Source of the DNA: a virus
DNA length: 31,319 nt
Virus record (IMG/VR): IMGVR_UViG_3300047163_000236
Span: 1-31,319 of that record
Strand: one strand, 5' to 3'
Shown here one piece after another: positions 11,430-29,535 of the stretch (positions are counted from its first letter, which is position 1; every line of letters starts with the position of its first letter). The notes beneath the pieces are model-generated. The model was given only the letters and a program-made list of their open reading frames with translations, did not search any database and was not told where the DNA came from. Made by a program: the position numbers and the translations under genes.

Positions 11430-11858
11430 ATGCCGTATAATACGTTTTCCGTTGGCAGCGACTGCCAACTTGTGGTGATGGGGCCGTTCGGCCGGGTGGA
11501 TTTGGCGCATGTGACCGGGTTTGAGGCGGCACAGGTAACGCAGGCGATTCGCGTGGACCGGCTGGATGGCGTGCAACTCGGCGCGGAGCTGCCCAAGGGT
11601 TGGCAAGGCGTATTCACTCTGGACCGTGGCTCCTCCGCCGCGGATGACTTTATCGCGTCAATCGAGCGGGCTTATTTGAATGGGCAGTCCATTGGGGCGG
11701 GGACTTTGTACCAATATGTTAACGAACCTGATGGCTCGACATCCACATACCAATTCAGTGGGGCCGTGTTCAAATTGGTGTCCGCCGGCGCGTACCGGGG
11801 GGATGCGCCGGTTGCGCAGAAATTGCAGTTTTACGCATCCAGCCGGGTGAGGGTGTGA
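11430..11858 (+). CDS. Tail tube protein
   Basis: A 142-aa protein directly after the sheath gene. The beginning MPYNTFSVGSDCQLVVMGPFG and centre LPKGWQGVFTLDRGSSAADDFIA fit the small beta-barrel tube proteins of contractile tails (FII/DUF2597-like). It would polymerise into the inner tube through which DNA passes. AAGGGAGAG lies upstream. Its stop overlaps the next gene's start (GTGATG at 11855-11860), a coupling usual between tube and chaperone genes. Confidence 0.88.
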   Translation: MPYNTFSVGSDCQLVVMGPFGRVDLAHVTGFEAAQVTQAIRVDRLDGVQLGAELPKGWQGVFTLDRGSSAADDFIASIERAYLNGQSIGAGTLYQYVNEPDGSTSTYQFSGAVFKLVSAGAYRGDAPVAQKLQFYASSRVRV

Positions 11859-12160
11859 TGGAGCGGGTGATTACGGACAAGGCCGGGCGGCGGCTGACGC
11901 TGCGCAAGTTCGGCGTGCTGGAAACGTTGCGATTGTTCAAAGGCGTGGGGCCGGAGCTTTCCGCAAACAACGCTTATATCGGCGTGGCGAGCTATGCCGG
12001 TTCTGTTGCGATGATTGACGATATTCCGATGCCCTTTCCGGCGAGTGAGGCGGGTGTTGAGGCGTTGATTGAGCGGCTTGGCGATGAGGGGATGGAAGCG
12101 GTGATGGCGGCGGCCAAGCCAGCGGCGATTGAGACGGTGGTTGCAGACGCGGGAAACTAA
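11858..12160 (+). CDS. Tail assembly chaperone, short (G-type) product
   Basis: A 100-aa protein starting at ATG 11858 (a GTG at 11855 is an alternative). It opens with MERVITDKAGRRLTLRKFGVLETLRLFKGVG, a pattern found in tail assembly chaperones, and ends helical (ALIERLGDEGMEAVMAA). Translation stops at TAA 12158-12160. The last two sense codons are part of the slippery sequence G_GGA_AAC, so a fraction of ribosomes should continue in the -1 frame. The chaperone coats the tape measure protein during tail assembly and is absent from the virion. Confidence 0.88.
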   Translation: MERVITDKAGRRLTLRKFGVLETLRLFKGVGPELSANNAYIGVASYAGSVAMIDDIPMPFPASEAGVEALIERLGDEGMEAVMAAAKPAAIETVVADAGN

Positions 12161-12330: not shown

Positions 12331-12365
12331 CCATTGATGAACGAAATAGTGCTATCGGGTTGAGT

Positions 12366-13328
12366 ATGAGGCGAATTCTTGTTTTGGGCGTTGCATGTTT
12401 ATTTGCCGTACTGTTGGCCGGCACAGCCGCGATTTATTGTTACGATGGCATGTATGGCATTAACACCGTATTGCATGGAGGGCCGACAAGGTGGCTTACC
12501 ATGCAGGCTGATGACAAGCGGCTGCCGGTTGAAATTCAGTGGGCGCTTGGGGGCCGGCCGCCGGAAGCGGCGCCTGGGCCGTTTGCATGGCGGCAGATTG
12601 AGCCTGGGCTTGAGGTTGCGGAACTGCCGGTGATTGCCGAGGGGCGCAATGTTGATAGCATATTGCTTACGCGGATCGACACGGAGAAGTTTCGATTTGA
12701 GTTGCGGAACAGGGAAGCGGGCGATCGTGACCTTGCCGGTTGGATGCGTGCGTTAAGGCCGGTGGTGTTGATTAACGCAAGTTATTTTTCGCCGGACGCG
12801 CGGCCGGATACACCGTTTTTGAGTGAAGGCCGGCTGATCTCAGCGCGGAATGACCCGCCGGCGCAGGGTGTTTTTACTGCTGGGCAAAGCGAGGCAGAGG
12901 TTGAGGCGCTGCCGAATAGCGATTGGGGGCGGGCCTTCCAGGGCGCTGAGAATGCGCTGGCGACATACCCGCTGCTGATTGGGCCGGATGGGTCCAATAT
13001 GGGCATTCAGGAGAGCCATTGGGTGGCGAACCGCAGTTTCGTGGGTGAGGATGGTAGCGGCGGGATTATTCTGGGTACGACGACCGGTGCGTTTTTTTCG
13101 CTCGCTAGGTTTGCGATATTTCTTCATTTGGCGCCTTTGGGGTTGAAATTGGCGTTGAATTTGGATGGCGGGCCGGTGGCGTGCCAGGCGGTGGATACGC
13201 CGGAATACCAGCGGCGTTTTTGCGGCGAGTGGGAGATACGCGACCGGGGTGGAATGTTTAAAGTTTTGAAAATGCCGAAGGGGAGTTGGATACCGTTGCC
13301 GGTTGTGCTTACAGTGTATCGGAAGTGA
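12366..13328 (+). CDS. Phosphodiester glycosidase (NAGPA/DUF2233)-like protein
   Basis: A 320-aa envelope protein in the place where a tape measure gene is expected. Residues 3-24 are an uncleaved signal anchor or signal peptide (ILVLGVACLFAVLLAGTAAI). The rest has the family's motifs in order: VVLINASYF (133-141), GRLIS (155-159), YPLLIGPDG (201-209), RSFVGED (223-229), and LNLDGGP (264-270), the near-invariant LDGG segment. Family members hydrolyse or handle glycan phosphodiesters, for example wall polymers or N-acetylglucosamine-1-phosphodiesters. The likely site is the periplasm. A TTG six bases earlier is an alternative start. It is a cargo gene, not a virion part by any feature I see; substrate unknown. 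Confidence 0.8.
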   Translation: MRRILVLGVACLFAVLLAGTAAIYCYDGMYGINTVLHGGPTRWLTMQADDKRLPVEIQWALGGRPPEAAPGPFAWRQIEPGLEVAELPVIAEGRNVDSILLTRIDTEKFRFELRNREAGDRDLAGWMRALRPVVLINASYFSPDARPDTPFLSEGRLISARNDPPAQGVFTAGQSEAEVEALPNSDWGRAFQGAENALATYPLLIGPDGSNMGIQESHWVANRSFVGEDGSGGIILGTTTGAFFSLARFAIFLHLAPLGLKLALNLDGGPVACQAVDTPEYQRRFCGEWEIRDRGGMFKVLKMPKGSWIPLPVVLTVYRK

Positions 13329-13351: not shown

Positions 13352-13540
13352 ATGTTTCCTTCACTAGATATAATAGACATTTTGACCTCGCGGCAAATTT
13401 TGGCTATTCCGGAGTTTTTGATTCTGTATGCTTTGTCCACGTTTGTTGTGAGGCTCGGCTTCAGAGAGTCTGTGCTATTCATCTTTCTTTATTTGCTCAA
13501 TCAAATCGTCATCGTTGCCGCTAATCAAGCGGCGGATTAG
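13352..13540 (+). CDS. Small two-helix membrane protein
   Basis: A 62-aa protein with two hydrophobic segments (about 17-34, ILAIPEFLILYALSTFVV, and 39-57, ESVLFIFLYLLNQIVIVAA) joined by a short basic loop RLGFRE. AGGTAGG lies 11 bases upstream. No homologue is recognised. It sits in DNA that becomes AT-rich relative to the phage genes. Its position ahead of a lysozyme-like gene makes an immunity, antiholin-like or holin-like role conceivable, without direct evidence. Confidence 0.55.
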   Translation: MFPSLDIIDILTSRQILAIPEFLILYALSTFVVRLGFRESVLFIFLYLLNQIVIVAANQAAD

Positions 13541-13555
13541 CTCAGATAACAAAAA

Positions 13556-13969
13556 ATGTTACATTCTAACGCCACGCTCAATCTTGTCACTTTAGGGCCG
13601 ATCTTCGCTATACCGGTCTCTCTTGCGTTCTATGTCGTTTTTAGGCATTCAATCGGCAAATCTATACCAGGACTAGCTTTGTTATTTCTCGCTACACCTG
13701 GCATCTTGCTAGCTTATCTGTGGTGGCTTATTTTAGATGACAGTTTTTTGTACTATATTTGTTTTAGTATCATTATAATACCAACCAATGTCATATCTCC
13801 ATGTTTTGCGATTTACGCAGTTTTTTTGGCTTGTAAAAAAAACGACTTTGTAAAAATGTCAGACTTACAAAAAAAAATACTTATAATATCGATTGGATGC
13901 CTAGGCATCTTTTATGTATATGATCAGATTGTTGTTTTTACACTAATTCAATCTTTGAGAGATTTTTAA
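13556..13969 (+). CDS. Four-helix membrane protein in AT-rich DNA
   Basis: A 137-aa very hydrophobic protein with four probable transmembrane helices (about 10-29, 37-60, 64-92, 107-130) and a charged loop ACKKNDFVKMSDLQKK between the third and fourth. Base composition is strikingly different from its surroundings (only 16 of 60 bases are G or C at 13741-13800), a sign of recent acquisition. No recognised domain. It ends 17 bases before the lysozyme-like gene. I consider an immunity protein against that gene's product the most interesting option, but nothing in the sequence proves it. Confidence 0.6.
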   Translation: MLHSNATLNLVTLGPIFAIPVSLAFYVVFRHSIGKSIPGLALLFLATPGILLAYLWWLILDDSFLYYICFSIIIIPTNVISPCFAIYAVFLACKKNDFVKMSDLQKKILIISIGCLGIFYVYDQIVVFTLIQSLRDF

Positions 13970-13986
13970 CATCAAAAGTGAGAAAA

Positions 13987-15468
13987 ATGGCCGTCTATAT
14001 TCCCCGTCCGGGCAAATCAAATACTGATCCGCAACCTTATGATAAAGCCGCTCTTCGGTATTTGAAAGATAACGAGTCAACTATAAATCTTGTTTCCTCT
14101 GATCTTGGTGTTTCCCCGAACGCCGTTGCGGGCAGTATGGCCCGGGAGATAACAAGATCCGATGGAGAAATATTGCCGGAACATGCCCTTCACGCGGTTT
14201 TGTTTGATCTCGCAAAGTTAAAGTCTGAGCAAAGCTATGAGGAGGAGTACCAGAAGGATTTACAAGACATTGCTCGAAACCCAGGTATTCTAGACGGTAA
14301 CCCATGGGGAAGATACCTCTCTTACCCTACCGTTCGGGATATCGGACCGGGTTCGATTAAAGTCTTTACCGCCATTCAGATAATAAAGCAGTACCAAGAG
14401 ACGGCGCAAGCTAAGGCACTCGGGTTAGATAAATATAAGTTGACCGACTTGAAGGCTATTGTTCATGATCTGAACGATCCGGCCAACCCGCTTAGTATCA
14501 AAATCGCCGGACTGGTCGTCTTGAATGGCCAAAAATTCTTCTCCGATAAATCCATTGCCGGAATTCCTTGGGCAAAGTTGACGAAGGAACAACAGGATGC
14601 CGCGCTAACCGCCTATTATACGGTTGGTGAGCATGCGGTTAGCGTTGACATGGCGAAGAATGAGTTTTTCCCTTTTGCGCCTGGGCCGAAGGGCGGCAAG
14701 GTGGGTCCCTGGATTTTATTCGGTAATAATTATTCAAATCTGAATACTATACTTGCGAAAGGCAGATCACTCGGCCTTTCGGTTGCCCCGGTTGCGCGGC
14801 CAAAGCCACCGCGAAAAGCGCAGCCCGAATATATGAAACACGCTGGAACGGGTGCGATGCTGGCTCCCGCACGGAAGGTTTTGGATTTGCTTCCGGTAGG
14901 TACAAATTATATTGCAAATATAGCGGCGGCAGTGGAGGCGGCAAATGTACCGGCAGCGAAGTATATGGCGGCGGCGGGAGGCTTGCCGCAATCTTTAGCG
15001 CCCCGGCTGTGGGCTGAGTTACCTGCTGACGTCAACCGGCGTGGGAGCACCTATACAGCGCTGGCGCAAGGACAGCCAGGCAGCTTAGTTAGTGAATTGT
15101 ATCTGGCGATGAAAGATAGGACCGCAATGGCGCTATGGGTTGCCGGTGCGGCAGCTTCGGCGCCGGTGTTTTCGAGATTTTCCGCAATCGAGCGGCGGAC
15201 ATTGCCTAGCATCTCGCCGATAGGGCGCCGTGCGCGGGACGAGGTTTCGGCTGAGCCTTTGGTTGCGCGAAGCGCGGAGAGCGCTATGCCCGCGGCCGGC
15301 CAATATGCAGCCCCGGTTTTGCCGGCGGGGCAAAAAATTGATCAGCGGCGGTTGCGCGGCGCGTTGGATGAGCTGTTGAGCCGGCAGGGGCGGTTGCCGC
15401 CTTCCGGCGGTGCGGCGTTCGACCCGCTGCTGACGCCGGCGTGGCCGGGGCTGCAACTGCCCGTTTGA
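13987..15468 (+). CDS. Lysozyme/transglycosylase-like domain fused to a phage tail C-terminus
   Basis: A 493-aa protein (ATG 13987; GTG at 13978 is possible). Residues 30-225 recall the lytic transglycosylase/lysozyme fold: SSDLGVSPNAVAGSMAREIT with a candidate catalytic Glu54, RDIGPGSIKVFTAIQII (117-133), which matches the usual glycine-rich motif, and DAALTAYYTVGEHAV (204-218), akin to the AYNAG motif. After about residue 265 the sequence is Pro/Ala-rich with weak hydrophobic stretches (NYIANIAAAVEAANVPAAKYM; MALWVAGAAASAPVF) and ends RGALDELLSRQGRLPP...FDPLLTPAWPGLQLPV. Base composition shifts from AT-rich to GC-rich within the gene, supporting a fusion. It has no long coiled coil, so it is not an ordinary tape measure protein. 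The enzyme role is inferred from motifs, and the tape-measure origin of the C-terminus from its position. Confidence 0.6.
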   Translation: MAVYIPRPGKSNTDPQPYDKAALRYLKDNESTINLVSSDLGVSPNAVAGSMAREITRSDGEILPEHALHAVLFDLAKLKSEQSYEEEYQKDLQDIARNPGILDGNPWGRYLSYPTVRDIGPGSIKVFTAIQIIKQYQETAQAKALGLDKYKLTDLKAIVHDLNDPANPLSIKIAGLVVLNGQKFFSDKSIAGIPWAKLTKEQQDAALTAYYTVGEHAVSVDMAKNEFFPFAPGPKGGKVGPWILFGNNYSNLNTILAKGRSLGLSVAPVARPKPPRKAQPEYMKHAGTGAMLAPARKVLDLLPVGTNYIANIAAAVEAANVPAAKYMAAAGGLPQSLAPRLWAELPADVNRRGSTYTALAQGQPGSLVSELYLAMKDRTAMALWVAGAAASAPVFSRFSAIERRTLPSISPIGRRARDEVSAEPLVARSAESAMPAAGQYAAPVLPAGQKIDQRRLRGALDELLSRQGRLPPSGGAAFDPLLTPAWPGLQLPV

Positions 15469-15476
15469 GGGGTGAC

Positions 15477-16175
15477 ATGAGCCAAGTAATTTTGACCCTG
15501 GGCGGCGTGAAATTCCAGGATTTTGAAGTGCCCGAGCAGATACGCTTTGGCGGCGGGCAGCGCCTGGCGGTGCATGAGCTGATCGGCGGCGGCCGGTTGG
15601 TGGATGCGCTGGGCGATGATGCCGGGGAGGTTGTATTTTCCGGAATCTTTTCCGGCAGTGATGCGGCATTGCGCGCGCAAACTTTGGATGCCGCGCGGGC
15701 GGAAGGTGCCGAGATTCCGCTGGTATGGGATGGGTTTTACTACACCGTCATTATCGCGGAGTTCGCGGCGGAGTACAACAAGCCCTGGTGGATTCCGTTT
15801 GCCATACGCTGCGCGGTGGTGGTTGACCCCGCCACTGCGTTTGACTCTTTGCTGGCGCCCGTTTCCAGTTTGATCAGCGGTGATATTTACGCGGCCTCGG
15901 CTCTGCTCTCGCTTGCGGGGTTGCCAGCGGGCGCCCTCGGTCGAGCGACGGCGGCTGGCCTAGCGGCCGTGCAGGCGGATATTGCGGGGGGACTTTCCAG
16001 CATGGGCAATTTGCTTGGCGGCAATGTGGCGGCGCTGAATGCGGCGCCGGATGCACTCACGGGTATTGGCGCGCTGAACCACATATCGGCAAACACAGGT
16101 GCTCTAGCGGGCTTGAGCGGCGTGAGCGGTTATGTGAACAGGGCCGCAACAAATCTGGCGGATGAACTTCTATGA
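15477..16175 (+). CDS. Baseplate/tail adaptor protein
   Basis: A 232-aa protein beginning at ATG 15477 with GAGGGG just upstream. The N-terminal half carries the pattern of tail proteins found beside LysM-type baseplate genes: FEVPEQIRFGGGQRLAVHELIGGGR, VVFSGIFSGSDAALRAQTLD, and YTVIIAEFAAEYNKPWWIPF. The C-terminal half is Ala/Gly-rich and helical (LAGLPAGALGRATAAGLAAV). It probably bridges the tape measure end and the hub. It overlaps the next gene by ATGA. Confidence 0.7.
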   Translation: MSQVILTLGGVKFQDFEVPEQIRFGGGQRLAVHELIGGGRLVDALGDDAGEVVFSGIFSGSDAALRAQTLDAARAEGAEIPLVWDGFYYTVIIAEFAAEYNKPWWIPFAIRCAVVVDPATAFDSLLAPVSSLISGDIYAASALLSLAGLPAGALGRATAAGLAAVQADIAGGLSSMGNLLGGNVAALNAAPDALTGIGALNHISANTGALAGLSGVSGYVNRAATNLADELL

Positions 16176-29022: not shown

Positions 29023-29535
29023 ATGGACAATTTTGCGCGTTGTTTTGCCTTCACTTTGGGGGCCGAGGGTGGCTATTCCAACAATGCCGCAGACCCCGGC
29101 AACTGGACCGGCGGTGCCGTCGGCAATGGCGAATTACGCGGCACCAAATTCGGCATCAGCGCCAGCGCCTATCCGCAGCTTGATATTGCGAACCTAACGC
29201 AAGATGAGGCCGAGGCGATTTACCGGCGTGATTACTGGGCGGCGCTGCAGGGCGATGATCTGCCGCTGCCCATCGCACTTGTCGCGTTCGACGCGGCGGT
29301 GAATGCCGGCCCGCGCCGCGCCATTTCCTGGCTGCAGCTCGCGGCTGGTATACCGGCTGACGGCGTGTTAGGCTCGGCAACGCTGGCGGCGCTGAACGCC
29401 GGTGACGCGGCGGCGCTGGCGCGGGAGGCGCTGGTGCGGCGGCTCGAATTTTCCACGCATCTGGCAACCTGGGCGAGCTTCGGCCTCGGCTGGTCCCGCC
29501 GGATCATCGCGCTGGCCGGCGAGGTTTCCGCATGA
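29023..29535 (+). CDS. Endolysin, GH108 muramidase with PG-binding domain
   Basis: A 170-aa peptidoglycan hydrolase. Residues 10-90 are a glycosyl hydrolase 108 domain: LGAEGGYSNNAADPGNWTGG holds the catalytic Glu15 of the EGGY motif, with Asp24 and the G.GtKFGIS strand following, and IALVAFDAAVNAGP near 85-97. Residues about 97-165 are a peptidoglycan-binding domain (ISWLQLAAGIPADGVLGSATLAAL). No signal peptide is present, so it needs a holin to cross the membrane. Length is normal for the family. Confidence 0.92.
   Translation: MDNFARCFAFTLGAEGGYSNNAADPGNWTGGAVGNGELRGTKFGISASAYPQLDIANLTQDEAEAIYRRDYWAALQGDDLPLPIALVAFDAAVNAGPRRAISWLQLAAGIPADGVLGSATLAALNAGDAAALAREALVRRLEFSTHLATWASFGLGWSRRIIALAGEVSA

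What the first reader, a model, noticed from the sequence alone, without database searches (positions are those of the whole stretch)
13987..15468. Lysozyme-like domain fused to a phage tail C-terminus
The N-terminal ~225 residues show lytic transglycosylase-like motifs (Glu54 context, DIGPGSIK, AYYTVG), while the C-terminal half has host-like GC content and a phage-like ending. The switch in composition inside one gene suggests recombination placed a peptidoglycan-cutting domain onto the remnant of a tape measure gene. If so, it would be loaded in the tail and delivered to the target periplasm.
Basis: inference. Interest (0 to 1): 0.75.

Follow-up and report, generated by a model that had tools for sequence, protein, structure and literature searches.

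The report
Swappable wall-cutting domain on tape-measure end
In a family of bacterial viruses with contractile tails, the gene slot for the tail's "tape measure" protein has been reused to hold exchangeable, probably cell-wall-damaging domains, nearly all with a matching partner gene next door, like interchangeable toxin-immunity cartridges in a syringe.

Summary
The ORF is real (13987-15468; a GTG at 13978 is an alternative start) and it is a fusion. Residues 1-245 form a domain with Glu54, DIGPGSIK and AYYTVG; Glu54 is invariant in relatives. Its low-confidence model best resembles MltE and goose-type lysozymes. The last ~45 residues match the C-terminal end of bona fide tape measure proteins (TMPs) by profile, far above shuffled controls. 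The gene sits in the TMP slot. In about 60 relatives this slot is empty (15 loci), holds a short disordered ORF that keeps the TMP end, or holds that end fused to one of at least three different AT-rich N-domains. Nearly every fusion has a class-specific membrane or secreted partner gene upstream; here 13556-13969. Displaced partners and one effector-deleted copy occur, and homologues of two N-domains head large repeat proteins on plasmids. Enzyme activity, tail loading and partner function are inferred. Closest known: MuF phage toxins, Sle1-type TMP-like effectors, Ltp and HK97 gp15 exclusion proteins.

The parts
13987..15468 (+). fusion gene (493 aa from ATG; alternative GTG start at 13978): effector-like N-domain joined to a tape measure C-terminal end
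13987..14721 (+). N-domain, residues 1-245, lysozyme/GH23-like by low-confidence model
14146..14148 (+). codon of Glu54, candidate catalytic acid
   Evidence: invariant in 5 homologues; catalytic role inferred
14338..14361 (+). DIGPGSIK, residues 118-125
14611..14628 (+). AYYTVG, residues 209-214
14722..15330 (+). variable middle region, residues 246-448; 36% identical over residues 248-494 to a relative with a different N-domain (L002)
15331..15465 (+). conserved tape-measure-derived C-terminal end, residues 449-493
   Evidence: hhalign to bona fide tape measure ends, score 49.8 vs shuffle maximum 11.4
13556..13969 (+). 137-aa multi-transmembrane protein, proposed cognate immunity / superinfection-exclusion partner, 8 bp before the GTG start of the fusion gene
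   Evidence: partner family 3, found with class A loci; GC 0.34
13352..13540 (+). 62-aa hydrophobic ORF, homologue in L002; role unknown
12360..13328 (+). NAGPA-type phosphodiester glycosidase with N-terminal hydrophobic segment, travels with class A cassettes
   Evidence: PF09992 E 1.3e-11; window, L002, L015, L016, L018
11430..11858 (+). tail tube protein by position, 5' landmark of the slot
11855..12160 (+). tail assembly chaperone by position, immediate 5' neighbour of the slot
15468..16175 (+). Mu gp43-like protein by position, 3' neighbour of the slot

Best explanation
The gene is the effector part of an exchangeable effector-immunity cassette that has taken over the tape measure slot of a contractile-tailed phage. 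The N-domain (residues 1-245) is most likely a GH23/goose-lysozyme-like peptidoglycan hydrolase with Glu54 as catalytic acid. The last ~45 residues are the retained end of the tape measure protein, which probably docks the protein in the tail during assembly. On contraction the protein is expelled into the target's periplasm, where it cuts the wall. The membrane protein encoded just upstream (13556-13969) protects the producing or lysogenic cell against that particular effector, so it would act as immunity and, against incoming sister phages, as superinfection exclusion. Swapping the effector together with its partner changes which cells are immune. Shown here: the slot, the fusion, homology of the end to tape measure proteins, N-domain swapping, class-specific partner genes, displaced partners, dispensability of the slot. 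Inferred: enzymatic activity, loading, delivery, immunity.
For: Slot: phiKX1 and two Rhodovastum prophages have a 697-807 aa tape measure protein there. End homologous to tape measure ends: score 49.8 vs at most 11.4 in 60 shuffles. At least three N-domain classes on the same end. Partner families go with N-domain class: family 1 with 8 of 9 class B loci, family 2 with 6 of 6 class C, family 3 with 3 of 3 testable class A. Orphan partners and an effector-deleted copy in L002 and L042. Plain ORFs have no room for a partner upstream. Domain homologues head large repeat proteins on Devosia and Pantoea plasmids, in Pantoea and Rahnella after a membrane protein. Class C resembles phage tail lysozymes. 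Top fifteen structural realignments of the focal N-domain are all GH23 or goose-type lysozymes. Purifying selection on the N-domain.
Against: No activity, loading or immunity data. The focal model has pLDDT 47.9 and Foldseek E-values are not significant. No Pfam, NCBIfam or PHROG hit. Class B has no known fold, so 'wall-cutting' cannot be extended to every class. One class B locus (L032) has no recognised partner. The small number of class A loci (four) limits the pairing argument for this class.
Confidence: 0.55

Rival explanations
1. Ordinary tail hydrolase: a tape-measure-type protein with a built-in wall-cutting domain that helps the phage's own DNA entry, as in mycobacteriophage TM4, with the upstream gene a plain superinfection-exclusion gene. 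No killing role.
For: Wall-cutting tape measure proteins are known (TM4, PMC1796659, listed); class C resembles tail lysozymes; prophage proteins that block entry at the tape measure step are known.
Against: The slot is empty or lacks such a domain in many relatives with the same tail genes, so the domain is not needed for entry. Class B has no hydrolase resemblance. The same domains head large plasmid-encoded repeat proteins.
Confidence: 0.22
2. Lysis cassette: the multi-transmembrane protein is a holin and the fusion a second endolysin acting in the host at the end of the cycle; the C-terminal end is a passive recombination scar.
For: A small multi-transmembrane gene directly precedes a lysozyme-like gene.
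Against: A GH108 endolysin is encoded at 29023-29535, followed by a small hydrophobic ORF. In sibling cassettes the partner is a secreted or transmembrane-plus-soluble protein, not holin-like. The tape measure end is kept in all fusions.
Confidence: 0.1
3. Moron used by the lysogen: the effector is released by or acts in the producing cell and is never loaded into the tail; the tape measure end is kept only because insertion happens there.
For: Cassette is AT-rich and dispensable; homologous domains occur on plasmid-encoded, probably secreted proteins.
Against: The same ~45-residue end is kept in frame in all the fusions compared and in the plain ORFs. No export signal was noted at the N-terminus of the fusion.
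Confidence: 0.1
4. Decaying gene: a broken tape measure remnant with an inserted foreign fragment and no function.
For: Relatives show reduction and loss of the tape measure protein; L002 and L015 carry broken copies.
Against: Three intact fusions under purifying selection and several different fusions with matched partners.
Confidence: 0.03

Closest known systems
MuF polymorphic toxins of temperate phages (Jamet et al. 2017, PMC5576092)
   Same: Phage structural-region protein with swappable toxin domains and small adjacent putative immunity genes.
   Different: MuF has its constant part at the N-terminus in the DNA-packaging module and variable toxin at the C-terminus, described in Firmicutes phages; here the constant part is the tape measure C-terminal end and the variable domain is in front.
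Sle1-type tape-measure-like effectors of actinobacterial contractile injection systems (Nagakubo et al. 2026, PMC13277306)
   Same: Effectors related to tape measure proteins with diverse functional domains; one has a neighbouring immunity gene.
   Different: Sle1 is cargo of a host phage-tail-like particle, has an N-terminal coiled coil and C-terminal variable domain, and pairs with a DUF4157 protein; here it is a phage with capsid genes and the polarity is reversed.
Superinfection-exclusion proteins Ltp (TP-J34) and HK97 gp15
   Same: Prophage-encoded membrane-associated proteins that block entry; Ltp acts on the tape measure protein.
   Different: No sequence relation was tested; here the partner is class-specific and linked to the effector it is proposed to neutralise.
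Mycobacteriophage TM4 tape measure protein with peptidoglycan hydrolase motif (PMC1796659)
   Same: Wall-cutting function in a tape measure gene.
   Different: TM4's is part of a full-length tape measure protein, without swapping or a partner gene; here only the end of the tape measure protein is left.
E. coli MltE (GH23) and goose-type lysozymes
   Same: Best structural matches of the N-domain; aligned ranges start with an offset of 10 residues, which would place Glu54 on MltE Glu64.
   Different: No detectable sequence-family membership; low-confidence model.

Membership tests
phage tape measure protein | gene lies between tail assembly chaperone and gp43-like/hub genes | tested here: met
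phage tape measure protein | C-terminal end homologous to bona fide tape measure ends | tested here: met
phage tape measure protein | tape measure N-terminus and body (PHROG/NCBIfam match, transmembrane segments) | tested here: not met
   no family hit; no hydrophobic segment found
phage tape measure protein | sets tail length / indispensable for the tail | not testable with these tools
   15 relatives have no ORF in the slot, which argues against it
GH23 / goose-type lysozyme-like hydrolase | lysozyme-superfamily fold | tested here: inconclusive
   MltE Z 6.8 but pLDDT 47.9, Foldseek not significant
GH23 / goose-type lysozyme-like hydrolase | conserved catalytic glutamate | tested here: inconclusive
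   Glu54 invariant in 5 homologues; alignment to MltE Glu64 inferred only from ranges
GH23 / goose-type lysozyme-like hydrolase | cleaves peptidoglycan | not testable with these tools
   bench assay needed
polymorphic toxin system | constant delivery part with swappable effector domains | tested here: met
   three N-domain classes on one end
polymorphic toxin system | adjacent class-specific immunity-like gene | tested here: met
   association of partner families with classes; protection itself not tested
polymorphic toxin system | variable toxin at the C-terminus | tested here: not met
   variable domain is N-terminal
polymorphic toxin system | toxicity | not testable with these tools
   bench assay needed
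MuF toxins | MuF domain | tested here: not met
   no Pfam or PHROG hit
Sle1-type effectors | N-terminal coiled coil and adjacent DUF4157 protein | tested here: not met
   N-domain has no coiled-coil-like body in the model; no DUF4157 hit in the genes scanned on both sides
holin-endolysin lysis cassette | the phage's lysis genes are at this place | tested here: not met
   GH108 endolysin lies at 29023-29535

The most novel reading that the evidence does not exclude
[quoted passage not shown] Lysogens would be protected from, and non-lysogens damaged by, each tail type. Sister phages carry a contractile tail module with no recognisable tape measure gene at all.
Probability: 0.5. Interest if true: 0.82.

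Novelty: new variant of a known kind. Interest (0 to 1): 0.64.

Why it matters
It would add the tape measure slot of real phages to the known delivery platforms for polymorphic effectors, with reversed polarity: effector in front, anchor behind. It offers a testable link between tail-borne wall-cutting enzymes and superinfection exclusion, since each effector class comes with its own partner. It also exposes contractile-tailed phages whose tail module has no recognisable tape measure gene, which asks how their tail length is set.

Tried and rejected
Pfam, NCBIfam and PHROGs on the fusion: nothing for the N-domain or the whole protein. PDB sequence search with class A, B and C profiles: nothing significant. 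P0001 alone in viral contigs, genome contigs and phages: no relative; neighbour genes and the C-terminal end were used instead. Both genome-contig scans found nothing, and the genome search draws no relatives for a virus record, so hosts were not identified directly. Profile comparison of class A with class C N-domains: no relation detectable, so 'one lysozyme family' is not claimed. Class B structure (pLDDT 77.9): no convincing PDB match, so its activity is left open. A holin reading of the upstream membrane protein and a pseudogene reading were considered and set aside (see rivals). Promoter and terminator scan: not decisive.

Full report
Observation. The window is a whole 31,319-bp IMG/VR virus record with terminase, portal, capsid, sheath, tube, chaperone-like, gp43-like, hub, spike, gp25, gpJ, gpI, fibre and GH108 endolysin genes in Mu-like order (several of these names rest on position). 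From the ATG at 13987 it encodes 493 aa; a GTG at 13978 is in frame. Composition drops to 34% GC in the gene just upstream (13556-13969), is 0.43-0.50 in most of the N-terminal domain and climbs gradually to 0.67 at the end. The change is real but gradual.

What the slot is. In Komagataeibacter phage phiKX1 and in two prophages on Rhodovastum atsumiense plasmids, the same interval between the chaperone-like gene and the gp43-like gene holds a 742, 807 or 697 aa protein that matches PHROG 28 'tail length tape measure protein' (TIGR01760 for one of them, E 3.2e-6, just under its cut-off). The focal gene lies exactly there.

Relatives. A scan with the tail tube found 80 viral loci. In about 60 with a complete interval (some are near-duplicates) three states occur. 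(i) Nothing: 15 loci have only 174-230 bp between the chaperone-like and gp43-like genes; four checked records keep the rest of the head and tail genes in order, and in most the sheath frame is full length. (ii) A single disordered, mostly high-GC ORF, mostly of 250-410 aa, that ends in a motif like QARLPPSGxxxFDPRLTPAWAGxKLP. L012 and L084 also keep a tape-measure-like N-terminus (hhalign score 37.2 vs at most 11.8 in 60 shuffles). (iii) A fusion of that end with an AT-rich N-domain, with extra genes upstream. The fusion ends match tape measure ends with score 49.8 against a maximum of 11.4 in 60 column shuffles, and the plain-ORF ends 53.5 against 12.7.

Swapping and partners. At least three N-domain classes sit on the same end. 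Class A is the focal type (window, L015, L016, L091). Class B is the L002 type (nine loci). Class C is found in L023, L026, L042, L044, L045 and L047 and resembles phage tail lysozymes and SLT proteins. A and C are not detectably related. Family 1 partners (transmembrane plus a ~150-aa soluble domain) occur with 8 of 9 class B loci and with no class A or C locus (Fisher P = 0.0004, which ignores relatedness). Family 2 (mostly ~165 aa, several with a signal-like N-terminus) occurs with 6 of 6 class C. Family 3 (137 aa, multi-transmembrane) occurs with the three class A loci whose upstream region is held. Plain ORFs have only 110-311 bp upstream, with no room for a partner. L002 carries a class B cassette followed by the NAGPA gene, a family 3 partner (frameshifted near its end) and an orphan C-terminal end from which the class A domain has been deleted. 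L042 keeps a family 3 protein downstream of its class C fusion. L027, L042, L043 and L047 have doubled partners. This is the pattern expected of displaced effector-immunity cassettes.

The N-domain. Four viral copies and one Devosia plasmid copy align; Glu54 is invariant. Among copies the domain shows pN 0.21-0.25 and pS 0.76-0.79, so it is under purifying selection. The AlphaFold model is weak (pLDDT 47.9, pTM 0.52). Foldseek gave no significant hit, but in the structural realignment of its candidates the first fifteen rows are all GH23 lytic transglycosylases or goose-type lysozymes (MltE Z 6.8, 118 residues, rmsd 4.3), and the aligned ranges start with an offset of 10 residues, which would set Glu54 on MltE Glu64 (inference; no residue-level alignment was available). 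The class B model, better in confidence, did not draw lysozymes to the top, so the result is not simply what any helical model returns. I rate a lysozyme-like hydrolase at about 0.7.

Mobility outside phages. The class A domain begins an 824-aa Devosia plasmid protein followed by a Hint-like segment (weak, below Pfam cut-off) and repeats. The class B domain begins an 821-aa Pantoea plasmid protein preceded by a 232-aa membrane protein, and a decayed copy in Rahnella is preceded by a related one. The domains therefore look like mobile effector modules.

Mechanism. Most likely the protein is loaded in the tail through its tape measure end, expelled into the target periplasm and cuts the wall there, while the upstream partner protects lysogens, either from self-damage or from sister phages. 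Precedents: MuF toxins for phage-borne polymorphic toxins (PMC5576092), Sle1-type effectors for tape-measure-derived effectors with an immunity partner (PMC13277306), Ltp and HK97 gp15 for prophage proteins that block entry, Ltp by acting on the tape measure protein (PMC4465916, PMC3952083, PMC4987407), and TM4 for a wall-cutting tape measure protein (PMC1796659, abstract listing only). T4 Sp, which inhibits the tail lysozyme of incoming T-even phages, is a further precedent from my own knowledge, not checked here. Loading, delivery, activity and immunity remain untested.

Verdict. It is a new variant of known kinds (polymorphic toxins on a phage structural protein; tape-measure-derived effectors). 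Hosts were not identified; the named relatives are acetic acid bacteria phages and Rhodovastum prophages (both Acetobacteraceae).

Noticed in passing
L073, L066, L078, L037 (and L030, L038-L040, L061, L064, L065, L067, L072, L079, L082): Contractile-tail gene sets in conserved order with no ORF at all in the tape measure slot (174-230 bp gap) and no other candidate in the tail module; how tail length is set is unexplained. The gp43-like protein is shorter in this lineage (about 235-250 aa) than in phages with a tape measure gene (277-306 aa).
   Followed up: partly
window 12360-13328: NAGPA-type phosphodiester glycosidase with an N-terminal hydrophobic segment that travels with class A cassettes (L002, L015, L016, L018); it could be a second protective or wall-modifying factor.
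   Followed up: partly
L002 4572-5984 and relatives (class B); model mf91f52e6699f: A confident model (pLDDT 77.9) of an N-domain with an invariant GxxDxQRG motif and no convincing PDB match: possibly an undescribed effector fold.
   Followed up: partly
L093 (Devosia sp. A8/3-2 plasmid CP104975.1) 4986-7460: Lysozyme-like domain followed by a Hint-like segment and long repeats, an architecture reminiscent of polymorphic toxins but with the effector-like domain in front.
   Followed up: no
L035 10375-11431: A further, split cassette: a 145-aa lipoprotein-like ORF and a 212-aa protein of unknown class in front of a 377-aa ORF that carries the constant end.
   Followed up: no
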